From a virus: a stretch of DNA of 64,000 nt. The DNA is taken from the IMG/VR virus record IMGVR_UViG_3300032313_000664, positions 1 through 64,000 of that record. One strand, given 5' to 3'. The translations under genes were made by a program, and so were the position numbers. Under the pieces are notes generated by a model that did no database searches, was not told the origin of the DNA, and worked only from the letters and a program-made list of their open reading frames with translations. Shown piece after piece: positions 1-61,740 of this stretch; position 1 is the first letter of the stretch; each line of letters starts with the position of its first letter.

Positions 1-35
1 AGTAGGCTTTCGATTGTGTATAGTTTGGTAGCCAT
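1..35 (-). CDS. 5' end of a leftward gene, cut by the window edge
   Basis: Only the first 11 codons (MATKLYTIESL) are inside the window. The ATG at 35 is preceded on the minus strand by GAAGG, a good Shine-Dalgarno sequence, and by a TATAAT box about 36 bases upstream. The product cannot be identified from so little sequence. Confidence 0.6.
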   Translation of the reverse strand, partial: MATKLYTIESL

Positions 36-70
36 TGGCAGACCTTCTTTCGTTTGTTGTTATGTATGGA

Positions 71-76
71 ATTATA
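71..76 (-). promoter_or_regulatory. -10 box (TATAAT) of the leftmost gene
   Basis: A perfect TATAAT on the minus strand lies 36 bases before the ATG at 35. No good -35 hexamer is visible at 16-18 bases. A CRP-like palindrome sits about 84 bases upstream of the predicted start site, so activator dependence is plausible. Confidence 0.5.
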
Positions 77-140
77 CACGAACCCACTGACATTTTCACA
101 TTACTAGCCAGTAAATCCAAATACTGAGACGCTCAAGTCG

Positions 141-156
141 TGTGATAAGCATCACA
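141..156. promoter_or_regulatory. CRP/GlxR-type palindrome
   Basis: The sequence TGTGA-TAAGCA-TCACA matches the TGTGA-N6-TCACA consensus of the CRP/FNR family, including actinobacterial Crp and GlxR, at every consensus position. It lies in non-coding DNA upstream of the leftward promoter at 71-76. The palindrome is seen directly; regulation by a host CRP-family protein is inferred. Confidence 0.5.
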
Positions 157-161
157 CCGAA

Positions 162-194
162 ATGTCCGTTTTGTCTGTCAAATCGACACGCCGT
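162..194. repeat. Repeat unit with core GTCAAATCGACA, first copy plus inverted partner
   Basis: TGTCAAATCGACACGCCGT at 176-194 recurs exactly at 272-290. Just before it, ATGTCCGTTTTGTC (162-175) is a near inverted copy of the related repeat at 1626-1642. The unit may be an operator or a replication-protein binding site. The rest of 36-304 holds no gene I can support. Confidence 0.6.
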
Positions 195-271
195 AAATTT
201 CAGGGTTTTTTATAACAAATCCGTAACGACACGCCCGACGCCGCCACCTCTTGTGGGCGCAGCTGCCGATT

Positions 272-290
272 TGTCAAATCGACACGCCGT
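272..290. repeat. Second exact copy of the 19-base repeat
   Basis: Identical to 176-194 and in the same orientation, 96 bases apart. The shorter core CGACACGCC also appears at 227-235, and CGACACGCCGT at 1157-1167. Confidence 0.7.
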
Positions 291-304
291 TTATTTATTG
301 TGAG

Positions 305-505
305 TTATGTCTCATCTTCTAATTCTGCTAAATAATCTTGGTGTTCTACTAAACCAATCGCAAACGCAACGGGATCGCAACACTCTAAGATTTCGGCGGG
401 AGTAAAAGTTGAGTAACCGATTTTTACAGTTGGATAAATGTCATTTAGTAAATCAATAAAACTTTCTTTGATTTCTAAATCTTTTTCAAATTGTGATTTA
501 TTCAT
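305..505 (-). CDS. Small acidic protein of unknown function (66 aa)
   Basis: Last gene of the leftward micro-gene operon. The minus strand shows GGGGGA five bases before the ATG, a strong ribosome binding site. The protein is acidic at its end (LAELEDET), probably mostly helical, with a Cys-Cys pair near the middle and no membrane segment. It overlaps the end of the upstream membrane micro-gene by 8 bases, so translation is probably coupled. I do not recognise a family. Confidence 0.75.
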   Translation of the reverse strand: MNKSQFEKDLEIKESFIDLLNDIYPTVKIGYSTFTPAEILECCDPVAFAIGLVEHQDYLAELEDET

Positions 506-611
506 TTAGTCCCCCGTTTTTTATGTCTTTGATTACGGCGATTAGTAGCGGAATAGTTACTCCCGCTAATAGTAATTGGACGGCGGTAGTTAGTAGGCGA
601 TTAGTAGTCAT
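498..611 (-). CDS. Membrane micro-protein (37 aa)
   Basis: Reads MTTNRLLTTAVQLLLAGVTI and continues to ...KNGGLNE. One hydrophobic stretch (about residues 9-26) predicts a single membrane helix with a short polar tail. The ATG at 611 overlaps the upstream stop as TAATG, and its end contains the start of the next gene. Such tight packing supports a real gene despite its size. Function is unknown; a small membrane effector or holin-like protein is possible. Confidence 0.55.
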   Translation of the reverse strand: MTTNRLLTTAVQLLLAGVTIPLLIAVIKDIKNGGLNE

Positions 612-766
612 TACTTATTCTTCTTTCTCTTATAAATCTTATAAGCGATTAGTGCTAGGGCGGTGATAATAATAGTGTGCCAAGGTAGATAGATAGACCC
701 TAGAAAACTATCTAACTCAAATCCGTATTCGCTAGTTATGTATAAATCAAATCCGTTAGGTATCAT
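611..766 (-). CDS. Membrane micro-protein with basic tail (51 aa)
   Basis: Starts MIPNGFDLYITSEYG. A C-terminal hydrophobic helix (about residues 29-43) is followed by a lysine-rich end (KIYKRKKNK), which predicts a tail anchored in the membrane with a positive cytoplasmic end. It is coupled by TAATG on both sides. I do not recognise a family. Confidence 0.55.
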   Translation of the reverse strand: MIPNGFDLYITSEYGFELDSFLGSIYLPWHTIIITALALIAYKIYKRKKNK

Positions 767-939
767 TATTCGTATGCCTCCCAATCTAGTGTTAGTGATT
801 TAGATAGTTCATCTTCATCATAATCGGTAGCGCCTATTTCTAAGCCCTCTGCTAGTGCCTTGTTATAGGCTTCTTCTTCATCTAGATAGACATAAGCGTC
901 TGCTATATCCGCTTGGATAGTATCCCATTTAGTCATCAT
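766..939 (-). CDS. Small acidic protein (57 aa)
   Basis: Starts MMTKWDTIQADIADAYVYL. Highly acidic and probably helical, with a run of Asp and Glu near residues 40-46. The first ATG (939) is chosen because it overlaps the upstream stop as TAATG. It is the fourth-last gene of the operon. Function is unknown; small acidic phage proteins are often inhibitors or DNA mimics, but nothing here proves that. Confidence 0.55.
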   Translation of the reverse strand: MMTKWDTIQADIADAYVYLDEEEAYNKALAEGLEIGATDYDEDELSKSLTLDWEAYE

Positions 940-1091
940 TACTTTACCTCTACTTCTCTAATGTTATAAGTGAAACCCTTACCGAGTTTATTTAGTTCAG
1001 CGATTACCGCTAAGATTTCTTCAGGCTTACTAGCCTTTTGATTTACGGCTAATAGTTGAGAGCCTTGCCATAGTGTATAAGTGATAGTCAT
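939..1091 (-). CDS. Small soluble protein (50 aa)
   Basis: Starts MTITYTLWQGSQLLAVNQ. The minus strand has GAAAGAAGAA before the ATG at 1091, a usable ribosome binding site. The pattern of a beta strand, a helix (EEILAVIAELNKLGKG) and a final strand suggests a small alpha/beta fold. Its stop overlaps the next ATG. No family recognised. Confidence 0.55.
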   Translation of the reverse strand: MTITYTLWQGSQLLAVNQKASKPEEILAVIAELNKLGKGFTYNIREVEVK

Positions 1092-1166
1092 TATCTGTTC
1101 TTCTTTCGTTAGTAGTTATAGTAGGAATTGTAGCGCATAGCGCCGACATTGTATAGCGACACGCCG

Positions 1167-1271
1167 TTAGGCGTTAGTGTGATTATGGTCACACACGGAC
1201 TCGATTTCGTGTCCGAACTCCTCTACGAGTTCCTCGTAGATTTCGTCCATATAATCAAGATAATCGTTCAT
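1167..1271 (-). CDS. Acidic micro-protein with His/Cys end (34 aa)
   Basis: Starts MNDYLDYMDEIYEELVEEFG and ends with a short Cys and His-rich tail (VCDHNHTNA) that could bind a metal. GGGAG precedes the ATG at 1271. The DNA for the His-rich tail also forms a perfect CRP-type palindrome (1178-1193). No family recognised. Confidence 0.45.
   Translation of the reverse strand: MNDYLDYMDEIYEELVEEFGHEIESVCDHNHTNA
1178..1193. promoter_or_regulatory. Second CRP/GlxR-type palindrome
   Basis: TGTGA-TTATGG-TCACA, another full match to TGTGA-N6-TCACA. It lies inside the 3' end of the 34-codon gene and about 77 bases upstream of a -10-like TATAAC (1115-1120, minus strand) that could serve the genes from 1091 leftward. 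Confidence 0.4.
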
Positions 1272-1275
1272 TAGA

Positions 1276-1464
1276 TTACTCCCAACTTCTAGTAGTGGCA
1301 ATTACTACACGCTTGCTAGGCTTGTAGTTAGGTAACTCGGTTAGAGTTACTGTATCTATAACTCTAGTCTGTGAGACTAGGTCTAGATACTCGTTAGCGT
1401 ATTCCTCGCTAGGAACTAGGAGGGTAGTAGAGCCTAAGCCTACTGTGTATTTTAGTGAAAACAT
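1276..1464 (-). CDS. Small protein of unknown function (62 aa), first gene of the left operon
   Basis: Starts MFSLKYTVGLGSTTLLVPSE; predicted alternating strands and one helix, soluble. A strong ribosome binding site (AAAGGAAAA) precedes the ATG. The 5' leader contains an 8-bp hairpin (1482-1500) next to the binding site, and a TATACT -10 lies at 1510-1515. It heads the leftward micro-gene operon that runs to 305. No family recognised. Confidence 0.65.
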   Translation of the reverse strand: MFSLKYTVGLGSTTLLVPSEEYANEYLDLVSQTRVIDTVTLTELPNYKPSKRVVIATTRSWE

Positions 1465-1481
1465 TTTGTTTTCCTTTCTTT

Positions 1482-1500
1482 ATCAAGAACCTTTCTTGAT
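1482..1500 (-). promoter_or_regulatory. Leader hairpin before the left operon
   Basis: ATCAAGAA and TTCTTGAT pair over a 3-base loop, just upstream of the ribosome binding site of the 62-codon gene. No T-run follows, so it is more likely an mRNA-stabilising or translation-control hairpin than a terminator. Confidence 0.4.
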
Positions 1501-1509
1501 TTTCTTTAT

Positions 1510-1538
1510 AGTATAACTCTAGCAGGGGGGTCTGACAT
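1510..1538 (-). promoter_or_regulatory. Leftward promoter of the micro-gene operon
   Basis: On the minus strand ATGTCA (1538-1533), 17 bases and TATACT (1515-1510). The -35 matches 4 of 6 positions. A degenerate CRP-like site (AGTGT-N6-TCACA, 1586-1601) lies about 90 bases upstream of the predicted start. Confidence 0.5.
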
Positions 1539-1553
1539 TTATCAAGTCGCAAC

Positions 1554-1642
1554 TCGGTCAAATCGGACATTTTAGAAAAGTAATTAGTGTTTTACATCAC
1601 ATTTAGCCTATTTATGGGCGCACTATCGGACAAATCGGACAT
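1554..1642. repeat. Pair of 17-base direct repeats in the divergent control region
   Basis: TCGGTCAAATCGGACAT (1554-1570) and TCGGACAAATCGGACAT (1626-1642) differ at one base and are spaced by 72 bases. They share the CAAATCG-ACA core with the repeats at 176 and 272. They lie between the leftward and rightward promoters, where a repressor operator would be expected. The rest of 1465-1773 holds no gene. Confidence 0.6.
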
Positions 1643-1706
1643 CCCCAAAGGGGTGTATCGTACAAATTAAAAATATATTAACATTTTGTCAAAATTGAAA
1701 AAGCTA

Positions 1707-1736
1707 TTGACTTTCGAAAAAACTAAATGTTATACT
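1707..1736 (+). promoter_or_regulatory. Strong rightward promoter
   Basis: TTGACT (1707-1712), 18 bases, TATACT (1731-1736): one of the best -35/-10 pairs in the window. It faces the small-gene run that starts at 1774. The transcript leader would begin with a G-run (1749-1754). Confidence 0.75.
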
Positions 1737-1773
1737 TGGGAAGGTTTCGGGGGGTTACACTAAGGAACTCAAT

Positions 1774-1884
1774 ATGCCAAGTAATTCTTGGAAGTTGGAT
1801 CCAGACTCTCCTCTATCTTTCCAAAAAGATTTTTTAAATTTGGGGGGTAGGGGGGGTTTGCTAAAAAATCTAATTTCCAAGTAA
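1774..1884 (+). CDS. Micro-protein after the rightward promoter (36 aa)
   Basis: Starts MPSNSWKLDPDSPLSFQKDF and ends in a glycine-rich, basic segment encoded by two G-runs. AAGGA lies 8 bases before the ATG and a strong promoter lies 38 bases before it. No homologue recognised. The stretch 1885-2008 after it is very AT-rich with a GCAATAG tandem pair and no gene. Confidence 0.4.
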   Translation: MPSNSWKLDPDSPLSFQKDFLNLGGRGGLLKNLISK

Positions 1885-1996
1885 TCAATTAAAAGCAAAT
1901 ACAAATATATAATATATATAAGCAATAGGCAATAGCCAAAAAATATTTTATTAACATTTGAATATATCTAATATTGCAGTTGACTAGAATATATAG

Positions 1997-2002
1997 TACA
2001 AT
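1997..2002 (+). promoter_or_regulatory. -10 box of a leaderless gene (TACAAT)
   Basis: TACAAT ends 6 bases before the ATG at 2009, so the transcript should start at or next to the start codon. No Shine-Dalgarno sequence is possible at that spacing. The -35 region is weak. Confidence 0.5.
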
Positions 2003-2008
2003 AGAGAT

Positions 2009-2119
2009 ATGAAATGCAACTTCTGCGATAATGAAAAATACGTCCAACGATTAAATTCGAGGGGGGCACTAGAGAACTTCTGTGTCGAATGCATTTCCAA
2101 ATTAAGGGTGGTATACTAA
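2009..2119 (+). CDS. Zinc-ribbon micro-protein (36 aa)
   Basis: Starts MKCNFCDNEKY. Two CxxC knuckles (Cys3/Cys6 and Cys25/Cys28) with a basic stretch between them form a minimal zinc ribbon. Such proteins usually bind nucleic acid or modulate a larger enzyme such as RNA polymerase; the actual role is unknown. The gene appears leaderless (TACAAT six bases upstream). Its last codons contain the -10 box of the next gene. Confidence 0.6.
   Translation: MKCNFCDNEKYVQRLNSRGALENFCVECISKLRVVY
2112..2117 (+). promoter_or_regulatory. -10 box of a leaderless gene (TATACT)
   Basis: GGTATACT followed by 6 bases and the ATG at 2124, the same geometry as the preceding gene. The box overlaps the last codons and stop of that gene. 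Confidence 0.55.
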
Positions 2120-2123
2120 GATC

Positions 2124-2291
2124 ATGAATAACATATCAACTAACCTAGCTCCATGTGATGTATGCAATTTATCACACTGGGGAGTAACAATGGATGATCA
2201 AGGAATCTTGTCTCCATACTGCACATATTGCTCTGGGGATTATGCCCATACTAAAGAAGCAAGAAATGCTGCAGAAGGTATCAATCCATAA
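2124..2291 (+). CDS. Second zinc-ribbon micro-protein (55 aa)
   Basis: Starts MNNISTNLAPCDVCNLSHWG. Two Cys pairs, CDVC (11 and 14) and CTYC (33 and 36), again form a zinc-ribbon pattern, followed by a helical C-terminus. It is adjacent to another zinc-ribbon gene and probably also leaderless. The pairs are spaced like treble-clef or ribbon folds; no specific family is recognised. Confidence 0.6.
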   Translation: MNNISTNLAPCDVCNLSHWGVTMDDQGILSPYCTYCSGDYAHTKEARNAAEGINP

Positions 2292-2314
2292 TATTATAGT
2301 CGACTAGGATTATT

Positions 2315-2458
2315 ATGCATGATCATGAAAATATTGTTCTAGCCACAGGTTCAGGAATAACTGAGATGCAGCTAATGTGGATTTTAATGGGAGCAATGGC
2401 TATTCACCATATTTGGATGTGGTGGAAGATGAAAAAGAAAAATTGTAACTGCAAGTGA
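2315..2458 (+). CDS. Membrane micro-protein with His/Met/Cys-rich ends (47 aa)
   Basis: Starts MHDHENIVLATGSGIT. One membrane helix (about residues 19-36, rich in Met, Trp and His) is followed by a basic CNC end (KKKNCNCK). AGGA lies 5-6 bases upstream of the ATG. It begins a run of four overlapping membrane micro-genes. The His, Met and Cys residues could bind metal, but this is speculation. Confidence 0.5.
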   Translation: MHDHENIVLATGSGITEMQLMWILMGAMAIHHIWMWWKMKKKNCNCK

Positions 2459-2532
2459 ACTGGTTACAAGCAACAATAATATTTGGACCTATATTGGTTC
2501 TATTAATAGCATTTTGGGATGATATAAAATGA
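2455..2532 (+). CDS. Membrane micro-protein (25 aa), GTG start
   Basis: Reads VNWLQATIIFGPILVLLIAF then WDDIK: nearly the whole chain is one membrane helix. The GTG overlaps the upstream TGA as GTGA and its own stop overlaps the next ATG as ATGA. Only the packing and the clean hydrophobic profile support it. Confidence 0.4.
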   Translation: MNWLQATIIFGPILVLLIAFWDDIK

Positions 2533-2675
2533 AGAAGATCTATGCTTTAATTGCGTTAACTGCGACAGCAGTCTTCTCAGGTCTAGCTTTGTCTAAATTT
2601 TTAAATTGGGCGGGAAAGCAAGAAGATATCTTTGATTTTGACCTAAATGAAGATATAGACAATGAACAGTTCTAA
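2529..2675 (+). CDS. Small exported or membrane-anchored protein (48 aa)
   Basis: Starts MKKIYALIALTATAVFSGLA, a typical signal-like N-terminus (Lys-Lys then a hydrophobic core), followed by a very acidic C-terminal half (EDIFDFDLNEDIDNEQF). The acidic part would face outside if inserted with the usual topology. It could be a spanin-like or antiholin-like partner of the neighbouring micro-proteins; unproven. Confidence 0.5.
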   Translation: MKKIYALIALTATAVFSGLALSKFLNWAGKQEDIFDFDLNEDIDNEQF

Positions 2676-2742
2676 ATCATTCCTATGGTCATTGCTAATC
2701 ATCCTTGGTGCATACTACTCATTGGTGTATATAACTCTATAG
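2662..2742 (+). CDS. Membrane micro-protein (26 aa)
   Basis: Starts MNSSKSFLWSLLIILGAYYS; one membrane helix and almost nothing else. It overlaps the previous gene by 14 bases in another frame. It ends the rightward micro-gene run. The evidence is weak beyond position and hydrophobicity. Confidence 0.4.
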   Translation: MNSSKSFLWSLLIILGAYYSLVYITL

Positions 2743-2970
2743 GGTAAAATCCCTAGCTTTTTCTCTCCCGCCCTTTTAAGGGTTCAAGTATCGGAGATAC
2801 CAAATATGACCCAGTAGGGCTTTAGAGGCCTCATAGAGGCTGTTTAAGGCATATTCTGCAAATGATCACATATGGGAAAGAGGGTGTTCTATTTTCGGCG
2901 CACTTTTTTCGCACTTTTTGCACTATATGTCCATATTGCCCGTATTATATAAATACTATCTATAAAAAGA
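2743..2970. other. Non-coding stretch with several small hairpins
   Basis: No convincing gene. Small inverted repeats are visible: TAGGG/CCCTA (2740-2755) followed by a T-run, CCCTT/AAGGG (2771-2782), GTATC/GATAC near 2790 and direct copies of GCACTTTTT near 2900-2925. TTGGTG (2722-2727), 17 bases and TAAAAT (2745-2750) is promoter-like. A small non-coding RNA ending at the terminator is possible. Confidence 0.35.
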
Positions 2971-3008
2971 AAAAATCCCATTCAGAGGCGGATCCGAATG
3001 GGCTTTTC
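2971..3008. terminator. Bidirectional terminator between converging units
   Basis: CCCATTC (2977-2983) pairs with GAATGGG (2996-3002). On the minus strand the stem is followed by a run of six T, and on the plus strand by CTTTTCT. It lies between the rightward micro-genes and the leftward lysozyme operon, exactly where a shared terminator is expected. Confidence 0.8.
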
Positions 3009-3083
3009 TAGTGTATTACTACACATTATATAGGGAGACATGGTGGTGTCTCTAACCTACACATCTTTATTGTAGAATATGTT

Positions 3084-3395
3084 TTATTCTAAGTCAACTA
3101 CTTTCTCATCATTTTTTGATATGCTTTCTACAATGGCCTCAGCTGGAGGATAGCTAGTAATAAATCCATAAGGATCCTTGCTTGTCTCAGGATTGTTCCC
3201 CAGGTATTCAAGATACTCTGGAAGATTAGTAATTTCAGCCAAAAGAACCATAAGGTCTACGCATCTTTTATGGGTAAACATATGTGTAGTATGACACCTA
3301 TATGCTTCATCTACATTTGGGCAAACTTTAAGTATTTCCATAAGTCTAAAAACAATCTTATGGGCCATCTCCATTTGTTCTTGACTATAAGCCAT
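3084..3395 (-). CDS. Helical protein of unknown function (103 aa)
   Basis: Starts MAYSQEQMEMAHKIVFRLME. Mostly helical, soluble, with Cys and His scattered over the first half (CPNVDEAYRCHTTHMFTHKRC) that could hold a metal. Last gene of the leftward lysozyme operon, overlapping the upstream gene by 11 bases, with the operon terminator about 80 bases downstream. Not recognised. Confidence 0.75.
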   Translation of the reverse strand: MAYSQEQMEMAHKIVFRLMEILKVCPNVDEAYRCHTTHMFTHKRCVDLMVLLAEITNLPEYLEYLGNNPETSKDPYGFITSYPPAEAIVESISKNDEKVVDLE

Positions 3396-3630: not shown

Positions 3631-3796
3631 TTTTATTTATCCCTCCATCAGTATTAGGGAAGATTACAGGCATCTTCCATTCGTATGTTTCAAATCCAGA
3701 AGACTCATATTGCATCTCTTCTGCCGCCGACGCACTTTCTGTTGCAATTTGTAGTCCTTGACCACAGCTACAATTTCCACATCCACATTCTGACAT
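3623..3796 (-). CDS. Cys-rich N-terminus micro-protein (57 aa)
   Basis: Starts MSECGCGNCSCGQGLQ: four Cys (4, 6, 9, 11) in a compact cluster that could bind zinc, iron-sulfur or copper. The rest is acidic and unstructured. The ATG overlaps the stop of the upstream 233-aa gene as TAATG and the stop overlaps the start of the 81-aa gene, strongly supporting a real gene. Not recognised. Confidence 0.65.
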   Translation of the reverse strand: MSECGCGNCSCGQGLQIATESASAAEEMQYESSGFETYEWKMPVIFPNTDGGINKNG

Positions 3797-4497
3797 TAGT
3801 TGTATTCCTTTCTGTTCCAGTATTTGTTTTTATACCAACCAATAATATGTTTTACCGACTCGCTACGTGCCAACTTTGCTTCAGACAAAAGATTAGTATT
3901 TCTTTCAAGTTTCCAAGGCTCTGATTTAATCGGTATAATTTGTGCAATAGGAGTGCCAGCTTTAATTATTCCTTCAAATCCCATTTGAAGAAGAAAAGGC
4001 ATTTTTCCACCATTCATTGGATAGTTTGCATCAACCACGCCAGACATTGTTCTAAATGGAAGATCATCTCTATTTAATGGATGAGTTATCAATAAGCTAT
4101 ATCCGTCTTCTACTTTTAGTATTTGTTTTGTGCTCCATGAAAAATGATTTGAGTGAAAGCCTTGAGGAATTGGTAATGTTGGCACCATTCCTTTGTCTCT
4201 TTCAATAACAAAATCTGTTTCTGTATAATCAGAGTCAAAAAAGTTCCAGCTTATTCTAGGGCCTCCTGGAGTTTGTTCAACAAGAAGATCTACAGGAGCT
4301 GGAATGTAATATCCAGTTAAAAAGGCATCCATAAAAGGAGCACAACTTTTTACTGTTATTGTAGATGGAGAAATGCTTAGCTTTCCTCCTGAAAACTTTT
4401 CTATTTTTTTAAACCAATCAGGAATTACATTTTTCATGTACCCTATTGGTTCAAATACTGGGTGATATAAATCGTATTCTAATTTTTTAGATTTCAT
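3796..4497 (-). CDS. Member 1 of a three-copy phage family of unknown function (233 aa)
   Basis: Paralogous to the genes at 17172 and 17818. All three share a start region with P(D/E)W-K spacing, a central CxPFxD/EAxxSGY-like motif (here SCAPFMDAFLTGYY), an SxxT/HPLNRDDLPF-like segment, PFLLQMGFEGIIKAGTPIAQ and IIPIKxExW. The fold looks mostly beta. From memory it resembles the DUF6065-type phage proteins, but I cannot confirm that. This copy sits in the lysozyme operon; the others lie behind a glycosyltransferase. A role acting on small molecules or surface sugars is only a guess. Confidence 0.75.
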   Translation of the reverse strand: MKSKKLEYDLYHPVFEPIGYMKNVIPDWFKKIEKFSGGKLSISPSTITVKSCAPFMDAFLTGYYIPAPVDLLVEQTPGGPRISWNFFDSDYTETDFVIERDKGMVPTLPIPQGFHSNHFSWSTKQILKVEDGYSLLITHPLNRDDLPFRTMSGVVDANYPMNGGKMPFLLQMGFEGIIKAGTPIAQIIPIKSEPWKLERNTNLLSEAKLARSESVKHIIGWYKNKYWNRKEYN

Positions 4498-6429: not shown

Positions 6430-8364
6430 ATGTCTAAGACTATTGCAAACCCATACGAAAATTTTATTGCGTTATCTCGATATGCAAGATGGATATCAGA
6501 AGATAATCGTCGTGAGACATGGGGAGAAACAGTAGATAGATATTTTAACTTCATGCTTGGTCATTTAGAAAAAAACCATAATTATATTCCAAATGAGAAG
6601 CTTGTTGCGGAATTAAAAGAGTTTGTCTTTGAACGAAATGTCATGCCATCAATGCGTTCTGTTATGACTTCAGGAGCAGCATTGGAAAGAGACAATGTAG
6701 CTGGATATAACTGTGCTTTCTTACCAGTTGATTCCCCACGTTCATTTGATGAGACAATGTATATCCTTATGTGCGGTACAGGTGTAGGATTCTCCGTTGA
6801 GTATAAGTACATCAATAAGCTTCCTGCCGTCCCAGAAACTTTAGAGAAGTCAACTACAGTAATTACAGTAGAAGATTCAAAGCAAGGTTGGGCTAAGGCA
6901 TACCGTGAGTTGCTAGCACTACTTTGGTCTGGACAAATTCCAGCAATTGATGTTTCTAAAGTGAGACCAGCAGGAGCAAGACTTAAGACAATGGGTGGAA
7001 GATCTTCAGGCCCACAGCCACTTATTAACTTGTTTGATTTTACAATTGCAAAGTTTAAGAATGCTACAGGAAGAAACCTAAAGCCAATCGAATGCCACGA
7101 CATTATGTGCAAGATTGGTGAAGTAGTTGTTGTAGGAGGAGTTCGTCGTTCAGCAATGATTTCTCTTTCTAATATTAATGATATTGAAATGGCACAGGCA
7201 AAGTCAGGTAACTGGTGGGAAGCAAGCCCACAACGTGCCTTGTCTAATAACTCTGTTGCGTATTCACGCAAGCCAGAGATGGAGCAGTTTATTGCAGAAT
7301 GGAAATCTCTATATGATTCAAAATCAGGAGAACGAGGCATATACAATGTGGCCGCAGCTCAAGCCCAAGCAGCCAAGTATGGAAGAAGAGATCCAGATAT
7401 ACACTATGGAACTAACCCGTGTTCAGAGATTATTCTACGTCCTTACCAGTTTTGTAATCTTTCAGAAGTCGTACTACGTGAAAATGATACAAAGAAAGAT
7501 ATTGAACGCAAAGTAGAACTAGCAACTATTCTTGGAACCTGGCAGTCTACTCTTACAGACTTTAAGTATCTACGTAAAATTTGGAAAGATAACACAGAAG
7601 AGGAACGCCTGCTAGGAGTTTCTTTGACTGGACAGTTTGGGCATAAGTTTATGTCAGGCAAACAAGATTTGGTTGCGCTAGAGTCATTTTTGATGACTCT
7701 TAGAGAAGCAGCAAGAGCAAAGAATAAAGAAGAGGCTGGGAGAATTGGGATTCCTGAGTCTGCCGCTATTACTTGTGTAAAGCCTTCTGGAACAGTATCT
7801 CAATTGGTCGGGGTATCTTCAGGAATGCATGCTTGGCATTCTCCATATTATATTAGAACTGTTCGTGGTTCAAAGGGAGATCCAATTTCTACCTTCCTTA
7901 AAGAGGTGGGGATTCCAGTAGAAGATGATGTAATGAAGCCAAACGATACATACGTATTTTCATTCCCAGTAAAGGCACCAGAAGGTGCAATTGTCAGAAA
8001 TGATCTAACAGCTACTGAGCACCTTAATATTTGGTTGGTTTACCAACGTGCATGGTGTGAGCATAAGCCTTCAATTACAGTTTCTGTAAAAGAAGATGAA
8101 TGGATGGAAGTTGGAGCTTGGGTATATAAGCATTTTGACGAGGTGTCTGGAATTTCATTCTTGCCACACTCAGATCACTCATACAAGCAGGCTCCTTATC
8201 AAGAAGTAGATAAGGCTGAATATGATGCACTTGTTGCAAAGATGCCTAAAGAAATTCGTTGGGAAGATTTGTCATTCTATGAAACAGAAGACGGCACATC
8301 TACTAATGCTACCCTTGCCTGCAGTTCAGACGGAAATTGTGAGCTAGTAGACATTTCTGCCTAA
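6430..8364 (+). CDS. nrdJ: Adenosylcobalamin-dependent (class II) ribonucleoside-triphosphate reductase
   Basis: Makes deoxynucleotides from ribonucleotides using vitamin B12 instead of oxygen or a glycyl radical. Conserved residues: Cys95 in AGYNCAF and Cys342 in FCNL form the redox pair. Cys331 in NPCSEIIL is the thiyl-radical site, 11 residues before Cys342 as in the Lactobacillus enzyme. GTGVGFSVE lies at 117-125, and the C-terminal swinging Cys pair (Cys631 and Cys637) regenerates the active site. The length (644 aa) fits the monomeric RTPR type. It is complete and apparently functional, supplying phage DNA synthesis in a host that has or imports cobalamin. Confidence 0.95.
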   Translation: MSKTIANPYENFIALSRYARWISEDNRRETWGETVDRYFNFMLGHLEKNHNYIPNEKLVAELKEFVFERNVMPSMRSVMTSGAALERDNVAGYNCAFLPVDSPRSFDETMYILMCGTGVGFSVEYKYINKLPAVPETLEKSTTVITVEDSKQGWAKAYRELLALLWSGQIPAIDVSKVRPAGARLKTMGGRSSGPQPLINLFDFTIAKFKNATGRNLKPIECHDIMCKIGEVVVVGGVRRSAMISLSNINDIEMAQAKSGNWWEASPQRALSNNSVAYSRKPEMEQFIAEWKSLYDSKSGERGIYNVAAAQAQAAKYGRRDPDIHYGTNPCSEIILRPYQFCNLSEVVLRENDTKKDIERKVELATILGTWQSTLTDFKYLRKIWKDNTEEERLLGVSLTGQFGHKFMSGKQDLVALESFLMTLREAARAKNKEEAGRIGIPESAAITCVKPSGTVSQLVGVSSGMHAWHSPYYIRTVRGSKGDPISTFLKEVGIPVEDDVMKPNDTYVFSFPVKAPEGAIVRNDLTATEHLNIWLVYQRAWCEHKPSITVSVKEDEWMEVGAWVYKHFDEVSGISFLPHSDHSYKQAPYQEVDKAEYDALVAKMPKEIRWEDLSFYETEDGTSTNATLACSSDGNCELVDISA

Positions 8365-14992: not shown

Positions 14993-15715
14993 ATGTTACG
15001 TCGCAAAGCGGGAAAATCCAAAAAGTCTACAGTAAGAAAAAATCAAGTTCCCAACTTATCTGGACTTACAAGGTCTCAAGCTCAAGCAGCATTAACAGCA
15101 GCGGGTTTTACTTATTCAGAATCTACAGTAACAACTAACTATTCTGCAGAAAACAATAAAATTAATTCTCAATCAATTTCTTCAGGATCTCTTAAAATAC
15201 TGGGAGATACTATTCCGTTTGTATATAACTCTTATGTGCCAATAACAGTACCCAACCTATCTGGTCTTTCACGGTCTGCGGCACAATCTGCAATCACAGC
15301 AGCAGGATTAGCTTACAGCGGAGAAAGCTCAACTGCATCAGGTTCCAGCGCTGGAAATAATGGGACTGTTTCATCTCAATCACCAGCATCAGGCTCACAA
15401 GTAGATGCAGGCACTTCTGTTTCTTACATTTATTATAATTATGTTGCACCATATTATGCTCCATATTATGCGCCTCCATACTATGAACCATATTATGCAC
15501 CACCTGTTTATCACGCACCACCTGTTTATCACGCACCAGCACCATTTCATCAGGTATACCATGAGCCTCCAGCAGGACCATACTATGCACCAGCACCATA
15601 TTATCAACCAACACAAAACTGCTCAGGATTCTATCGTGAATTTGGAAACCCTAACTGTGGTGGATATGCAGCGCTATACAACAATTGTGGACAGTTCTTG
15701 GGATGCGATGATTAA
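14993..15715 (+). CDS. PASTA-domain tail protein with Tyr/Pro/His-rich tail (240 aa)
   Basis: Two PASTA domains (about residues 19-80 and 86-150), each opening with VPNLSGLxRxxAQxAxxAAG. PASTA domains bind peptidoglycan stem peptides in Ser/Thr kinases and penicillin-binding proteins. Residues 150-206 are repeats of YYAPxYYxP and PPVYHAP type, extended and sticky. The end has four Cys (210, 222, 232, 238). The basic N-terminus (MLRRKAGKSKKS) has no clear signal. The gene starts directly after the stop of the cupredoxin fibre. It probably binds the Gram-positive cell wall during adsorption. Confidence 0.75.
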   Translation: MLRRKAGKSKKSTVRKNQVPNLSGLTRSQAQAALTAAGFTYSESTVTTNYSAENNKINSQSISSGSLKILGDTIPFVYNSYVPITVPNLSGLSRSAAQSAITAAGLAYSGESSTASGSSAGNNGTVSSQSPASGSQVDAGTSVSYIYYNYVAPYYAPYYAPPYYEPYYAPPVYHAPPVYHAPAPFHQVYHEPPAGPYYAPAPYYQPTQNCSGFYREFGNPNCGGYAALYNNCGQFLGCDD

Positions 15716-15727
15716 TTCATCAACATC

Positions 15728-15756
15728 TAGACAAAATCTTTTTAAAGGGGTATAAT
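15728..15756 (+). promoter_or_regulatory. Promoter of a leaderless transcript
   Basis: TAGACA (15728-15733), 17 bases, TATAAT (15751-15756), then 7 bases to the ATG at 15764. A near-consensus promoter with no room for a Shine-Dalgarno sequence. Confidence 0.7.
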
Positions 15757-15763
15757 ATATAAT

Positions 15764-16156
15764 ATGATAAAAAACTTTTTTGCCAACCTAGACGGAGATA
15801 AGATAAACTTTTTATCTATTGAGGTAAACCCCGATGGATCAGCTATAGACCCAGCACAAGATGACAAATGCTATGTTCTTTCAAATAATCCGACTGCTTT
15901 AAATATAACTTATTTAAATTATTTTCCAGCAAGAAGAAGTATTTGGGACGGGTCATCCTTTATTGCTCCAGAGGGCCAGGAGCATAAGTTACCATGCAAT
16001 CCAATAGATCTTTGTTTAGATGGATGTGAATCTATTGCGTTTTTAGTAGATAACGTTTATTACGGAGGAATAGGGCTTTGCGTAGGCGTTGCTAACAATG
16101 ATATGCTTATTGCTATTTTAAGTAGCAATCCTGTAATAACTTTCGAAATAGAGTAG
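15764..16156 (+). CDS. Protein of unknown function (130 aa)
   Basis: Starts MIKNFFANLDGDKINFLSIE. Predominantly beta, with Cys residues clustered at 85-93 (CNPIDLCLDGC-type spacing). It follows a strong leaderless promoter and heads a unit with a glycosyltransferase and two paralogous proteins. Probably structural or an accessory to the glycosyltransferase. Not recognised. Confidence 0.65.
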   Translation: MIKNFFANLDGDKINFLSIEVNPDGSAIDPAQDDKCYVLSNNPTALNITYLNYFPARRSIWDGSSFIAPEGQEHKLPCNPIDLCLDGCESIAFLVDNVYYGGIGLCVGVANNDMLIAILSSNPVITFEIE

Positions 16157-16162
16157 GTGTAA

Positions 16163-17179
16163 ATGAATAGTAAAATATTTGTTTGCACTTCTGCTTACAA
16201 CGATACAGACATAGAGCTAACTCTAGAAACAGCTTATTTAAATGCCAGCAGTCCAACAGGTATATATTTTGGAATTGCTATGCAATATCCAGATATACAG
16301 AAACCAGACCTATCGTCATATAAAAATGTTAGAACAATTGACATATTAGATCCCCACCCGATTGGCACAAGCCCAAGCAGAGCAGTGGCGGCAAAATTAA
16401 TAAAAGATGAACATTATTTTTTATCAATAGATGCACACACAATATTTAAAAAGGACTGGGATAAAAACCTAATACAATATTTTTCTGAAATTAAAGAAAA
16501 ATATAAAAAACCAATTATTAGCACCTACAGCCCATACTGGTACAGAGATGAGCAAGGCTGTATATTTAATCAAAATAAAAAGTTGTCGTTTGAAGAGGAA
16601 ATGGAACAACACACTTTAAATTTTAAAATGGATGATGATTTTTTTCCAGGAAACTATACTATGCCAACCCCAACATGGGGCAAAAAGGTTACTTCTAGGT
16701 ATGAAGAGCATTATTTAATTGGAGCGCATCTTTTATTTGCTGAATCTTCTTATTTAGAAGAAGTTCCGTTTGACCCATACATTACTTATCATGAAGAAAA
16801 TACTACAGCTATGAGAGCATGGACAAGAGGGTACAGAATTTTTGCAATAGACAAGGACATATTGTGGACAAGAGAAATGTATCATGGAGTTGCTGATGCC
16901 GAGTCCTGGAGAAAAAAAATTGAAAGAAAAAGTTCAGACGGCTTTAGTTATGCAGACAAGATATCTCTTGGAGCGCTAAGATGTAAAGATATACTTTTAG
17001 GAAAAGAGTTAGGGCTATACGGATCTCCAAATATTAATTTATTAAAAGAATATGAAATTGCCGCTGGAGTAGATCATGAATCTATATATAAAAAAATATA
17101 TGATCGTGTAGAAGCAAGCTTAGATGTGAATACTCCAGCTAGATCTATGTACAATTTTGACAAGGCAAGAAATGCCTAA
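16163..17179 (+). CDS. GlcNAc-type glycosyltransferase, GT60-like (338 aa)
   Basis: Starts MNSKIFVCTSAYNDTDIELT and has a GT-A fold pattern: IYFGIAMQYPDIQ, GTSPSRAVAAKLI, then the metal-binding DAH (Asp90-His92) in YFLSIDAHTIFKKDWD. Further on is HEENTTAMRAWTRGYRI. These match the Skp1-type GlcNAc transferase family (Pfam Glycosyltransferase GlcNAc), known to modify hydroxylated or Ser/Thr residues of proteins. Lying between fibre genes, it may glycosylate a virion protein. The substrate is not visible in the sequence. Confidence 0.8.
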   Translation: MNSKIFVCTSAYNDTDIELTLETAYLNASSPTGIYFGIAMQYPDIQKPDLSSYKNVRTIDILDPHPIGTSPSRAVAAKLIKDEHYFLSIDAHTIFKKDWDKNLIQYFSEIKEKYKKPIISTYSPYWYRDEQGCIFNQNKKLSFEEEMEQHTLNFKMDDDFFPGNYTMPTPTWGKKVTSRYEEHYLIGAHLLFAESSYLEEVPFDPYITYHEENTTAMRAWTRGYRIFAIDKDILWTREMYHGVADAESWRKKIERKSSDGFSYADKISLGALRCKDILLGKELGLYGSPNINLLKEYEIAAGVDHESIYKKIYDRVEASLDVNTPARSMYNFDKARNA

Positions 17180-17825
17180 GCTAAACTTTGTAACTTTATC
17201 TGATAATAGCAACTACCCTATACCAGCAATTAAAGCTCTTCCAGAATGGTATAAGTCTGCAAAAAAATATTTTAGCGATGGAGAAAGCACTTATAAAAAC
17301 TGCATTCCTTTTTTTGAGGGCATGTATTCAGGATATGTAATGCTTATGCCTTGCGACGTAGAATTTTACATTGATAATGATATACCCAGATTTAAAATAG
17401 ACAAGGAGTATAGTTTTTTTATATCTTCCAGGTCCCCGATGTCAGATTTTAAAACACCTTTCGGATATTACGATGATCATTTTGCCTGGAAGCCTCAGTG
17501 GGGGGTCGAGTCGCCAGAAGGGTACAATGTGTTGTATATGACTCCATTTAATGGATATGATGTTCCATTTCTTAATACATCAGGAATAATAAATAATGAT
17601 AAAACTTCTCACCCAGGAAACATACCGTTTTTCTTAAGAAAAGGTTTTTCTGGTATTATTAAAGCAGGAACTCCATTCTTACAGATAATACCTATTAAAA
17701 GAGAAAGTTGGGAATCAGGAAATAAAGTTCTTGATCCAGAAACTATAGATCATTTTAAGCCAGGAACCCCAAGAATACAAGATCATTACAAAAAGGCGAT
17801 ATGGGAAAGAACAAGATATGAATAA
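17172..17825 (+). CDS. Member 2 of the three-copy family (217 aa)
   Basis: The start at 17172 (MPKLNFV) is preferred because AAGG lies 7 bases upstream; a TTG five codons earlier is possible. It shares with the genes at 3796 and 17818 an LPEWYKSAKKYF-type N-terminus, CIPFFEGMYSGY, FAWKPQWG, TPFNGYDVPFLNTSG and FSGIIKAGTPFLQIIPIKRE. It overlaps the glycosyltransferase gene by 8 bases and the next paralogue by 8 bases, so the three are probably made together. Function unknown. Confidence 0.75.
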   Translation: MPKLNFVTLSDNSNYPIPAIKALPEWYKSAKKYFSDGESTYKNCIPFFEGMYSGYVMLMPCDVEFYIDNDIPRFKIDKEYSFFISSRSPMSDFKTPFGYYDDHFAWKPQWGVESPEGYNVLYMTPFNGYDVPFLNTSGIINNDKTSHPGNIPFFLRKGFSGIIKAGTPFLQIIPIKRESWESGNKVLDPETIDHFKPGTPRIQDHYKKAIWERTRYE

Positions 17826-18507
17826 AATAAAGTTCTATGCGTGGGATGAAAAAGCTGAAGAAATTACATTGCCTCCTGTTCCTGCAATAAAAAATGTTCC
17901 AGACTACTGGAGGAAAAGCGAAAGGTTTGTGGGTTCAAAAGACTTAGAGCTTTTAAATAACGGAATGCCAAACCTAGGGCTAAAACACTGTATGCCATTT
18001 TTAGATGCAATAACTTCAGGCTATCACTACAGACTTCACTGTGATGTAGAATTTAAAATAATTAATGGCATTCCAAATGTTTTTTTTGATTCTGTTTTAA
18101 ATCCAGCATATCCAAGATCTAAAGATGATCTTCCAACCCCAGCTGGTTGTCACGACCAAGGATTTTTTTGGCAAATGTGGTGGGGCACAAGCCTACCAGA
18201 AGGCTGGTCTGCATTGGTAACTAGTCCATTAAATCGCCCAGATCTGCCATTTGTAGTAAACAGCGGAATAGTTGACTATGACAAGTATGTAGCGCCAGGA
18301 AATATTTCCTTTTATATTAAAAAAGATTTTGAAGGGGTCATAAAAGCAGGTACTCCTATTTTTCAAATAATACCAATTCGCAGAGAACCATGGGAGATGG
18401 AAATTGATCAGTCCCTAAGAGATATTGGCCATAGCAATTTTAAAAAAAAGGTAGAGAATGTTTATGGATATTACAAAAAAATATTAAGGCAAGATAAGCA
18501 ATATTAA
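17818..18507 (+). CDS. Member 3 of the three-copy family (229 aa)
   Basis: Same architecture as the genes at 3796 and 17172: VPDYWRKSERF, CMPFLDAITSGYHYRLHCDV, FFWQMWWGTSLPEGW, SPLNRPDLPFVVNSGIV and FEGVIKAGTPIFQIIPIRRE. The tandem arrangement suggests local duplication followed by divergence. The conserved aromatic and Cys residues suggest a binding pocket, but the ligand is unknown. Confidence 0.75.
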   Translation: MNKIKFYAWDEKAEEITLPPVPAIKNVPDYWRKSERFVGSKDLELLNNGMPNLGLKHCMPFLDAITSGYHYRLHCDVEFKIINGIPNVFFDSVLNPAYPRSKDDLPTPAGCHDQGFFWQMWWGTSLPEGWSALVTSPLNRPDLPFVVNSGIVDYDKYVAPGNISFYIKKDFEGVIKAGTPIFQIIPIRREPWEMEIDQSLRDIGHSNFKKKVENVYGYYKKILRQDKQY

Positions 18508-18602: not shown

Positions 18603-18872
18603 ATGCCAAATGAAAAAAGCGCCTGGCAAAGATACAAAGAAAACTTAGGAGAGACCCGCCCATGGGACATAGTCAATCCAAACACCCAATGGGCTTCTGA
18701 AGAAGAGGCCAATAAGAGGTATAGCATCTGTAACACGTGCCCAGAACTTATAAGCCTTACAAAACAATGTAAAAAATGTGGTTGCTTTATGGCCGCAAAG
18801 ACTAAGATTGCCTCAGCGTCTTGCCCTATTGGTAAATGGGGCAAAGAAGAGATTCCTGAAGACATTATATAA
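18603..18872 (+). CDS. DUF6171-like zinc-ribbon protein (89 aa)
   Basis: Characteristic phage zinc-ribbon: RYSICNTCPEL (Cys43, Cys46), QCKKCGCFM (Cys56, Cys59, Cys61) and ASCPIGKW (Cys74). This pattern is common in large tailed phages and cyanophages. The function is unknown; metal-binding structural role is likely. It stands alone between the two-paralogue unit and a large fibre gene. Confidence 0.8.
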   Translation: MPNEKSAWQRYKENLGETRPWDIVNPNTQWASEEEANKRYSICNTCPELISLTKQCKKCGCFMAAKTKIASASCPIGKWGKEEIPEDII

Positions 18873-18895: not shown

Positions 18896-18901
18896 TATAA
18901 T
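18896..18901 (+). promoter_or_regulatory. -10 box of a leaderless fibre gene (GGTATAAT)
   Basis: GGGGGTATAAT, then 7 bases to the ATG at 18909. The same AGGGGTATAATATA context occurs at 15746-15760. The -35 is weak. Confidence 0.6.
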
Positions 18902-21116: not shown

Positions 21117-21737
21117 ATGTCATTAAAAAGATGGAACGGTACAGCGTGGGTAACCGTCGCTGGTTCAAGACCAGGACCCCAAGGTGCAACAGGACCGACA
21201 GGTGCAGCGGCAACTATTTCTGTAGGAACAGTAACAACTGTTGCAGCAGGAACATCAGCAGCAATTACAAACGGCGGAACATCATCTGCTGCAATATTAA
21301 ATTTTCAAATTCCAGCGGGACCAACAGGTGCAGCAGGATCAGCGGGAGCACAAGGTGTGGCGGGACAAAGAGGTTCTTATACATTTACAGGAATTGCTAA
21401 TCCAACAGGATCAAATCCAGCAAGCAAGCTAGGGCTCGACACATATTTAAACACAACAAGCGGAGACTACTTCCAATATAATTCTACAAACTCTACATGG
21501 GTACTTCAAGGAAACTTAAAGGGCCCAGTAGGAACAGCTGGTACACAAGGTATCACTGGCCCAACTGGAGCAACTGGTCCAGCGGGAGAAACAGCAGTAC
21601 AAAATGTAATAACAGAGCTAGAAAGCTGGAAGGCAGACCAGATACTAAATCTTGGTGTATACTATCCAAAGTACGAGTTCTTAACAAATATGTCACAAAA
21701 CAATGCAACACTTTTAGCAACAAGCATGATATTCTAG
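21117..21737 (+). CDS. Collagen-like tail protein (206 aa)
   Basis: Gly-X-Y runs (GPQGATGPTGAAA, GPTGAAGSAGAQGVAGQRG and GPTGATGPAGET) alternate with VGTVTTVAAGTSAAITNGGT modules that also occur in the 36687 gene. Ends in a helical segment. Phage collagen-like regions form triple helices that stiffen fibres. The ribosome binding site is AGGAGGG. It precedes the largest tail protein of the region by 12 bases. Confidence 0.7.
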   Translation: MSLKRWNGTAWVTVAGSRPGPQGATGPTGAAATISVGTVTTVAAGTSAAITNGGTSSAAILNFQIPAGPTGAAGSAGAQGVAGQRGSYTFTGIANPTGSNPASKLGLDTYLNTTSGDYFQYNSTNSTWVLQGNLKGPVGTAGTQGITGPTGATGPAGETAVQNVITELESWKADQILNLGVYYPKYEFLTNMSQNNATLLATSMIF

Positions 21738-61723: not shown

Positions 61724-61740
61724 TCTGTAAATGGTATAAT
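61712..61740 (+). promoter_or_regulatory. Promoter of a leaderless tail gene
   Basis: AGGACA (61712-61717), 17 bases, GGTATAAT (TATAAT 61735-61740), 6 bases to the ATG at 61747. Same GG before the -10 as the other leaderless genes. Confidence 0.6.

What the first reader, a model, noticed from the sequence alone, without database searches (positions are those of the whole stretch)
15764..18507. Leaderless unit coupling a GlcNAc transferase to the unknown family
From one strong promoter come a Cys-containing 130-aa protein, a GT60-like transferase and two family members, the last three with 8-base overlaps. This compact unit looks like a modification pathway of its own, set among adhesin genes, and is a good candidate for an undescribed system.
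Basis: inference. Interest (0 to 1): 0.65.

Follow-up and report, generated by a model that had tools for sequence, protein, structure and literature searches.

The report
Phage fibre tailoring gene cassette
Between two tail-fibre genes this actinobacterial virus carries a swappable cassette, made of a sugar transferase and a pair of proteins with a dUTPase-like fold, that probably decorates the proline-rich stalk of the fibre next door; this gives a testable answer to what the many 'cryptic' proline-hydroxylase-like and sugar-transferase genes of environmental phages are for.

Summary
The genes, 8-base overlaps and promoter-like site are real. The 130-aa protein is not co-conserved with the rest: the recurring set is DUF6171 Zn-ribbon-like protein, GT60-like transferase, and one or two members of the unknown family F. 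The GTs closest to this one are all followed directly by F, and 5 of 15 GT lineages have F adjacent. F (phrog_7084, related to DUF6065) is predicted with high confidence (pLDDT 91.6) to have the dUTPase / dCTP-deaminase fold, but lacks dUTPase motifs II and V, so it is not filed as a dUTPase. F loci are rich in 2OG-Fe(II) oxygenases (35 of 80). The gene upstream is a PASTA fibre ending in a Pro/Tyr/His-rich stalk; in relatives this slot carries GT60+F or 2OG oxygenases, and Pro-rich genes have tailoring enzymes nearby far more often than other genes (11/14 versus 10/75; cassette-blind sample 5/5). Best reading: an exchangeable cassette that hydroxylates or glycosylates the fibre stalk. 'Leaderless' is well supported: GGTATAAT lies 7 nt before ATG, conserved in orthologues (9/37 starts versus 3/658 other ATGs). 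Substrate and F's activity are inferred, not shown.

The parts
14993..15715 (+). PASTA-domain fibre protein, proposed substrate (240 aa)
   Evidence: PF03793 PASTA E 2.3e-19; C-terminal Pro/Tyr/His repeats
15446..15616 (+). Pro/Tyr/His-rich repeat stalk (YYAPPYYEPYYAPPVYHAPP...), proposed acceptor region
   Evidence: comparable stalks in L001, L002, L037-L039, L043, L046, L047, L051, L250-L255
15617..15712 (+). Cys-containing tip after the stalk
   Evidence: sequence
15751..15756 (+). TATAAT -10 element, 7 nt before the start codon of ORF1 (leaderless architecture); weak -35-like TAGACA at 15728-15733
   Evidence: conserved in L038-L043; pooled enrichment
15764..16156 (+). ORF1, 130 aa, Cys-containing, function unknown; part of the constant slot, not of the GT-F set
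   Evidence: no Pfam, PHROG, NCBIfam or PADLOC hit; orthologues L037-L043, a remote one in L255; AF2 model unusable
16163..17179 (+). GT60-like glycosyltransferase (PF11397, GlcNAc transferase family), 338 aa
   Evidence: invariant D90/H92 (IDAH, DxD-like) and conserved EENTTAMRAWTRGY region in the five closest GTs
17172..17825 (+). FA: phrog_7084 family, dUTPase-like fold inferred from FB, 217 aa; carries Asn at the position of the conserved Asp153
17818..18507 (+). FB: phrog_7084 family, predicted dUTPase-like beta-clip fold, 229 aa; conserved Asp153, Gln183, Lys56, Cys58
18603..18872 (+). DUF6171-like small Cys-rich (Zn-ribbon-like) protein, recurrent companion of the cassette
   Evidence: PF19668 E 2.6e-5 just under its cut-off, phrog_13558 E 1e-16; next to GT or F in L001, L002, L047, L051, L181, L186
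18896..18901 (+). second TATAAT element 7 nt before the next fibre gene (18909); marks the probable downstream edge of the unit
3796..4497 (-). third F-family member, unlinked to GT

Best explanation
The unit is one version of an exchangeable fibre-tailoring cassette. It sits directly behind a PASTA fibre gene whose C-terminal part is a Pro/Tyr/His-rich repeat stalk with a Cys-containing tip. The GT60-like enzyme adds a sugar (GlcNAc by family precedent) to residues of that stalk or of a neighbouring fibre. FA and FB, a tandem pair with a dUTPase-like beta-clip fold, act on or bind the same substrate as partners of the transferase; FB keeps the conserved acidic residue and FA does not, so FB is the likelier active subunit. 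Related phages fill the same slot with 2OG-Fe(II) oxygenases or other sugar genes, so the common purpose is chemical diversification of the host-contacting fibre. Shown here: gene order, recurrence, fold prediction, stalk-cassette association, promoter conservation. Inferred: the substrate, the sugar, the role of F, the single leaderless transcript.
For: GT is a strong PF11397 member. In a scan by GT alone, 5 of 15 GT lineages (60% clusters) have F adjacent, mostly with overlapping start/stop codons, and the closest GTs (L001, L002, L046, L047/L071, L051, L011, L014) all have F directly downstream. F loci found by F alone have a 2OG oxygenase within 2 kb in 35 of 80, DUF6065 in 27, DUF6171 in 13; halogenase, P450, sulfotransferase, methyltransferase and GT genes also occur near F. 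The same slot holds PASTA-ORF1-GT-FA-FB-DUF6171-fibre here, PASTA-x-DUF6171-GT-FA-FB-fibre in L001/L002, PASTA-ORF1like-DUF6171-2OG-2OG-2OG-fibre in L254/L255, PASTA-F-x-DUF6171-2OG in L251, PASTA-2OG in L250. Genes with a Pro-rich stretch have a tailoring gene in the next three genes in 11 of 14 cases versus 10 of 75 for other genes of the same contigs (P 2.4e-6); in loci chosen by the PASTA part only, 5 of 5 close ones with downstream sequence do (L250, L251, L252, L254, L255). Fold: AF2 pLDDT 91.6, all 50 listed PDB hits dUTPase or dCTP deaminase. Precedent: GT60 Gnt1 of Toxoplasma adds GlcNAc to hydroxyproline made by a prolyl hydroxylase (PMC6939170).
Against: No 2OG oxygenase was found in this 89.8-kb record (one search had no positive control), so a hydroxyproline acceptor would need another source; the record may be incomplete. 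GT60 also includes a T. cruzi polypeptide GlcNAc transferase (PMC6939170) that by general knowledge uses Thr. Other fibre genes nearby could be the substrate. Part of the association sample was collected through cassette genes, and L254/L255 are near duplicates; the more distant PASTA locus L253 has no cassette. F occurs without GT in haloviruses and cyanophages, so its role is not tied to GT60.
Confidence: 0.5

Rival explanations
1. The cassette modifies the host: GT60 and F alter cell-wall or surface glycans during infection, to exclude superinfecting phages or release progeny, and lie beside fibre genes because both evolve with the receptor.
For: Phage glycosyltransferases are commonly read this way, e.g. 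for Nanopelagicales phages E7/F5 (PMC10202952). The slot lies in a fibre region with collagen and Mtd_N domains.
Against: Does not explain the specific link to Pro-rich stalk genes or the exchange with 2OG oxygenases and DUF6171. No membrane or secretion signature was seen in GT, FA or FB on reading the sequences.
Confidence: 0.2
2. F is a nucleotide enzyme (dNTP, NDP-sugar or nucleoside) of dUTPase type that supplies or controls nucleotides; the GT link is secondary.
For: dUTPase fold; Asp153 aligns with the catalytic Asp of dUTPase motif III and Gln183 with motif IV; F lies near ribonucleotide reductase in HF1, Hardycor2, S-RIM4 and L167.
Against: dUTPase motif II Arg-Ser is replaced by an invariant Pro and a hydrophobic residue, and motif V is absent. 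RNR is near F in only 4 of 80 loci against 35 of 80 for 2OG. Tandem copies and fibre location are not typical of nucleotide enzymes.
Confidence: 0.15
3. F proteins are structural: a trimeric beta-clip collar or chaperone that clamps the trimeric fibre, itself part of the virion, with GT decorating it.
For: dUTPase-like folds form trimers and fibres are trimeric (general knowledge); F lies next to baseplate/tail genes in the haloviruses examined.
Against: Near-strict conservation of Lys56, Cys58, Tyr69, Asp76, Asp/Glu153, Thr179, Gln183 and Trp192 across very different phages looks like an active site or ligand pocket; orphan chromosomal copies occur in Gammaproteobacteria MAGs.
Confidence: 0.1
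4. DNA base modification: GT60 glycosylates a hydroxylated base and F handles the modified nucleotide.
For: 2OG oxygenase plus GT pairs exist in DNA hypermodification (general knowledge); F has a nucleotide-enzyme fold.
Against: Placed among fibre genes, away from replication genes; the DUF6171 and stalk association points to protein; characterised PF11397/GT60 enzymes act on polypeptides (PMC6939170).
Confidence: 0.05

Closest known systems
CAZy GT60 / PF11397 polypeptide alpha-GlcNAc transferases (Skp1 Gnt1)
   Same: Pfam match far above cut-off; conserved DxH motif; GT60-like genes beside 2OG oxygenases in some related loci
   Different: Phage-encoded, overlapping F genes; no 2OG partner found in this record; acceptor unknown
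dUTPase / dCTP deaminase superfamily
   Same: Predicted fold; Asp153 and GTPIxQ align with motifs III and IV
   Different: Motif II Arg-Ser and motif V missing; extra N- and C-terminal parts; near-invariant Lys56, Cys58, Trp192, Tyr219; tandem pairs next to tailoring enzymes
DUF6065 (PF19541) and phrog_7084
   Same: F is phrog_7084; profile-profile match to the DUF6065 cluster P 1.8e-10
   Different: No function recorded for either; no paper in the library mentions DUF6065
Phage virion glycosylation genes, e.g. the two putative glycosyltransferases of mycobacteriophage Maravista (PMC11256854, abstract)
   Same: Phage-encoded transferases thought to modify virion proteins
   Different: There the proposed target is the capsid and no dUTPase-fold partner is mentioned; here the cassette is tied to a Pro-rich fibre stalk
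Viral prolyl 4-hydroxylases (P4HA among the most widespread auxiliary genes in Baltic Sea water viruses, PMC9301287)
   Same: 2OG oxygenases in the same slot beside Pro-rich repeats
   Different: PMC9301287 says their use by viruses 'remains cryptic'; here a concrete candidate substrate gene is adjacent. The window's version has GT60+F instead.

Membership tests
GT60 / PF11397 | Profile match above the curated cut-off | tested here: met
   88.2 bits vs 21, E 9.9e-25
GT60 / PF11397 | DxD-like metal/nucleotide-sugar motif conserved | tested here: met
   IDAH, D90 and H92 invariant in the five closest GTs; motif role from general knowledge
GT60 / PF11397 | Transfers GlcNAc to Hyp or Thr of a polypeptide | not testable with these tools
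   needs enzyme assay
dUTPase superfamily (fold) | dUTPase-like beta-clip fold | tested here: met
   AF2 pLDDT 91.6; Foldseek E 1.6e-5, prob 1.00, TM 0.71 by target, all 50 listed hits dUTPase/dCTP deaminase; a prediction, not a solved structure
dUTPase (enzyme) | Motif III catalytic Asp and motif IV Gln | tested here: met
   Asp153 (Asp/Glu in 156 of 160; Asn in FA of this clade) and Gln183 align in hhalign; alignment P only 4e-4 to 1.5e-3
dUTPase (enzyme) | Motif II Arg-Ser | tested here: not met
   Aligned position is invariant Pro137 followed by L/M/F/I
dUTPase (enzyme) | Motif V C-terminal Gly-rich arm | tested here: not met
   Absent; C-terminus is a helix and basic YKKxxWxKKxY
dUTPase (enzyme) | Profile match to PF00692 | tested here: not met
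   No match at E up to 1 for FA/FB nor anywhere in the own record
phrog_7084 | Profile match | tested here: met
   1.1e-30 and 2e-29
DUF6065 (PF19541) | Profile match above the curated cut-off | tested here: not met
   FA/FB none; relative L031 19.6 bits vs 26.6; homologous by profile-profile
Leaderless transcription unit | -10 element 6-8 nt before the start codon, conserved | tested here: met
Leaderless transcription unit | Mapped 5' end at the start codon | not testable with these tools
   needs RNA 5'-end mapping
Hydroxyproline glycoprotein pathway | Prolyl hydroxylase encoded by the same phage | tested here: inconclusive
   None in this record (97 without positive control), 2OG oxygenases present in the same slot of relatives

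The most novel reading that the evidence does not exclude
A bacteriophage analogue of hydroxyproline-rich glycoproteins: PASTA fibres with Pro-rich repeat stalks are tailored by swappable sets of 2OG oxygenases, GT60 transferases and a new class of dUTPase-fold tailoring proteins (F) that act on polypeptides rather than nucleotides.
Probability: 0.28. Interest if true: 0.85.

Novelty: new variant of a known kind. Interest (0 to 1): 0.62.

Why it matters
It also names a concrete substrate candidate for the prolyl-hydroxylase-like and glycosyltransferase genes that are abundant in aquatic phages and whose use has been called cryptic (PMC9301287). Decorated fibre stalks would matter for adsorption, stability and receptor choice, and the hypothesis can be tested by mass spectrometry of one phage.

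Tried and rejected
F as cupin/2OG (jelly-roll) enzyme: rejected, all listed PDB fold hits are dUTPase/dCTP deaminase. F or GT as known defence protein: no PADLOC hit. ORF1 as part of the GT-F set: rejected by relatives. ORF1 structure: model unusable (pLDDT 39). GT in PDB by sequence: none. RNR linkage of F: seen in several phages but weak in numbers. Promoter strength alone as evidence: an 11/12 site is expected by chance; only position and conservation count. Search with the broad GT alignment A2 failed. Papers on DUF6065: none.

Full report
OBSERVATION. The four ORFs, their coordinates and the two 8-base overlaps are as described. GT is a PF11397 member (E 9.9e-25); FA and FB are phrog_7084, function unknown. 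A third F gene lies at 3796-4497 on the minus strand, and these three are the only ones in the 89.8-kb record. The record is an actinobacterial phage by inference: its portal protein is 58% identical to Streptomyces phages such as BillNye and Genie2, and it encodes PASTA and DUF3107 domains.

LEADERLESS START. The site TAGACA-17-TATAAT is the best promoter match locally, but as a consensus match it is not rarer than chance. TATAAT followed by exactly 7 nt and ATG is conserved before ORF1 orthologues in L038-L043, although the -35 is not. In the related contigs L037, L038, L039 and L043, 9 of 37 gene starts against 3 of 658 other ATGs have TATAAT 5-8 nt upstream (P 2.5e-10); in the window it is 3 of 57 against 4 of 1240 (P 0.0025). 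So leaderless initiation from an extended -10-like element is likely a general device of this phage group. GT-F-F relatives without ORF1 (L001, L002) have a promoter-like site at the same place but with a leader and an AAGGAG ribosome site.

WHAT IS CO-CONSERVED. Scanning viral contigs with GT only and then asking for F shows F adjacent in 5 of 15 GT lineages (60% identity clusters), mostly with overlapping start/stop codons. The nearest GTs (L001, L002, L046, L047, L071, L051, L011, L014) all have F directly downstream, and L013, L063, L181, L184 and L186 show other GT/F orders. The DUF6171-like gene joins GT or F in L001, L002, L047, L051, L181 and L186. ORF1 does not: L001/L002 lack it, and its orthologues lie next to 2OG, epimerase or no cassette downstream (L037). 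The real set is therefore DUF6171-GT-F(-F), and ORF1 belongs to the slot in front. No annotated phage record was found with both: F hits are haloviruses and a few cyanophages, GT hits are XacN1, CM1 and RAS14.

THE UNKNOWN FAMILY. From the motif order P-GYS, GIVDxD, GTPIxQ I suspected a dUTPase-like beta-clip before folding (note). AlphaFold2 on 36 family members gave pLDDT 91.6. Foldseek against the PDB returned only dUTPases and dCTP deaminases among the 50 listed (best E 1.6e-5, prob 1.00, TM 0.71 by target), and the viral library gave the own family plus dUTPases. Profile-profile alignment places Asp153 on the motif III Asp and Gln183 in motif IV; dUTPase and dCTP deaminase rank above the 39 other profiles not known to be related, though with modest P (1.5e-3, 3.4e-3), while DUF6065 is a clear homologue (P 1.8e-10). 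Motif II (Arg-Ser) and motif V are missing, so F is not filed as a dUTPase. Lys56, Cys58, Gly68, Tyr69, Asp76, Pro137, Thr179, Gln183, Trp192 and Tyr219 are nearly invariant in 160 sequences, and position 153 is acidic in 156; FA of this clade has Asn. Upstream and downstream members of tandem pairs form largely separate lineages (26 label changes against a shuffled minimum of 47), which fits a two-subunit arrangement. Halovirus HF1 carries one F copy near tail genes and RNR.

NEIGHBOURHOOD. Of 80 loci found with F alone, 35 have a 2OG-Fe(II) oxygenase within 2 kb, 27 DUF6065, 13 DUF6171 and 4 a tryptophan halogenase; P450, Asp/Asn hydroxylase, sulfotransferase, methyltransferase and GT genes also occur near F. 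F is thus a companion of enzymes of the kind that tailor side chains.

THE STALK. The gene in front of the cassette is a PASTA protein ending in Pro/Tyr/His repeats and a Cys-containing tip. Counterparts carry YHAP (L001), YYAPP (L002, L051), QYYAAP (L047), PVGVS (L046), PPPYDN (L037), PTPT (L038, L039) or PPPFPPPF (L254, L255) repeats. In 17 contigs Pro-rich genes had a tailoring gene among the next three genes in 11 of 14 cases against 10 of 75 for other genes (P 2.4e-6). Because some contigs were found through cassettes, I also fetched loci by the PASTA part only: all five close ones with downstream sequence (L250, L251, L252, L254, L255) have 2OG and/or F next to the stalk; L249 and L256 end too early, and the distant L253 has none. 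L254/L255 are near duplicates.

MECHANISM. Shown: slot structure, exchange of GT60+F with 2OG oxygenases, association with Pro-rich stalks, predicted fold of F. Inferred: GT60 glycosylates the stalk or a neighbouring fibre, F assists as partner enzyme or substrate-binding subunit with FB the likelier active one. The eukaryotic GT60 enzyme Gnt1 needs hydroxyproline made by a prolyl hydroxylase (PMC6939170), which fits the stalk-2OG-GT60 triangle; but no 2OG gene was detected in this record, so here the acceptor may be Thr/Ser/Tyr, or the hydroxylase may be supplied otherwise.

NOVELTY. Virion glycosylation by phages is a known kind; the dUTPase-fold partner, its tie to GT60/2OG genes and the Pro-rich fibre stalk as common denominator were not found in the papers or family libraries searched. 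Viral prolyl hydroxylases are abundant in aquatic phages, with their use described as cryptic (PMC9301287); this finding makes that question testable.

Noticed in passing
window 18896-18901, 61735-61740 and L039:1249, 2204, 5001, 6905, 7445, 8096: Recurrent (G)GTATAAT element 6-8 nt before start codons, without a conserved -35: probable leaderless promoters of this phage group.
   Followed up: yes
window 1-3084: No ORF above 66 aa on either strand for 3 kb, unusual in a dense phage genome; may hold small genes or a non-coding region.
   Followed up: no
L211-L214, L216, L225 (Gammaproteobacteria and Ponticaulis MAGs): F-family genes occur as apparently chromosomal orphans or tandem pairs in bacteria, away from phage genes.
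   Followed up: partly
L200 (HF1), L248 (Hardycor2), L247 (cyanophage S-RIM4), L167, window 6430-8364: Ribonucleotide reductase lies near F in several unrelated viruses, but in only 4 of 80 F loci overall.
   Followed up: partly
L154:2408-3205 cluster (19 loci): A further family beside F pairs with a weak profile similarity to F (P 0.0077), possibly a third F-like paralogue.
   Followed up: no
L167:6639-8264, L063:2199-3755: Tryptophan halogenase genes in phage contigs close to F-family genes.
   Followed up: no
window 21117-21737: Collagen-like (Gly-X-Y) fibre protein downstream of the unit, a second possible substrate for hydroxyproline or GlcNAc modification.
   Followed up: no
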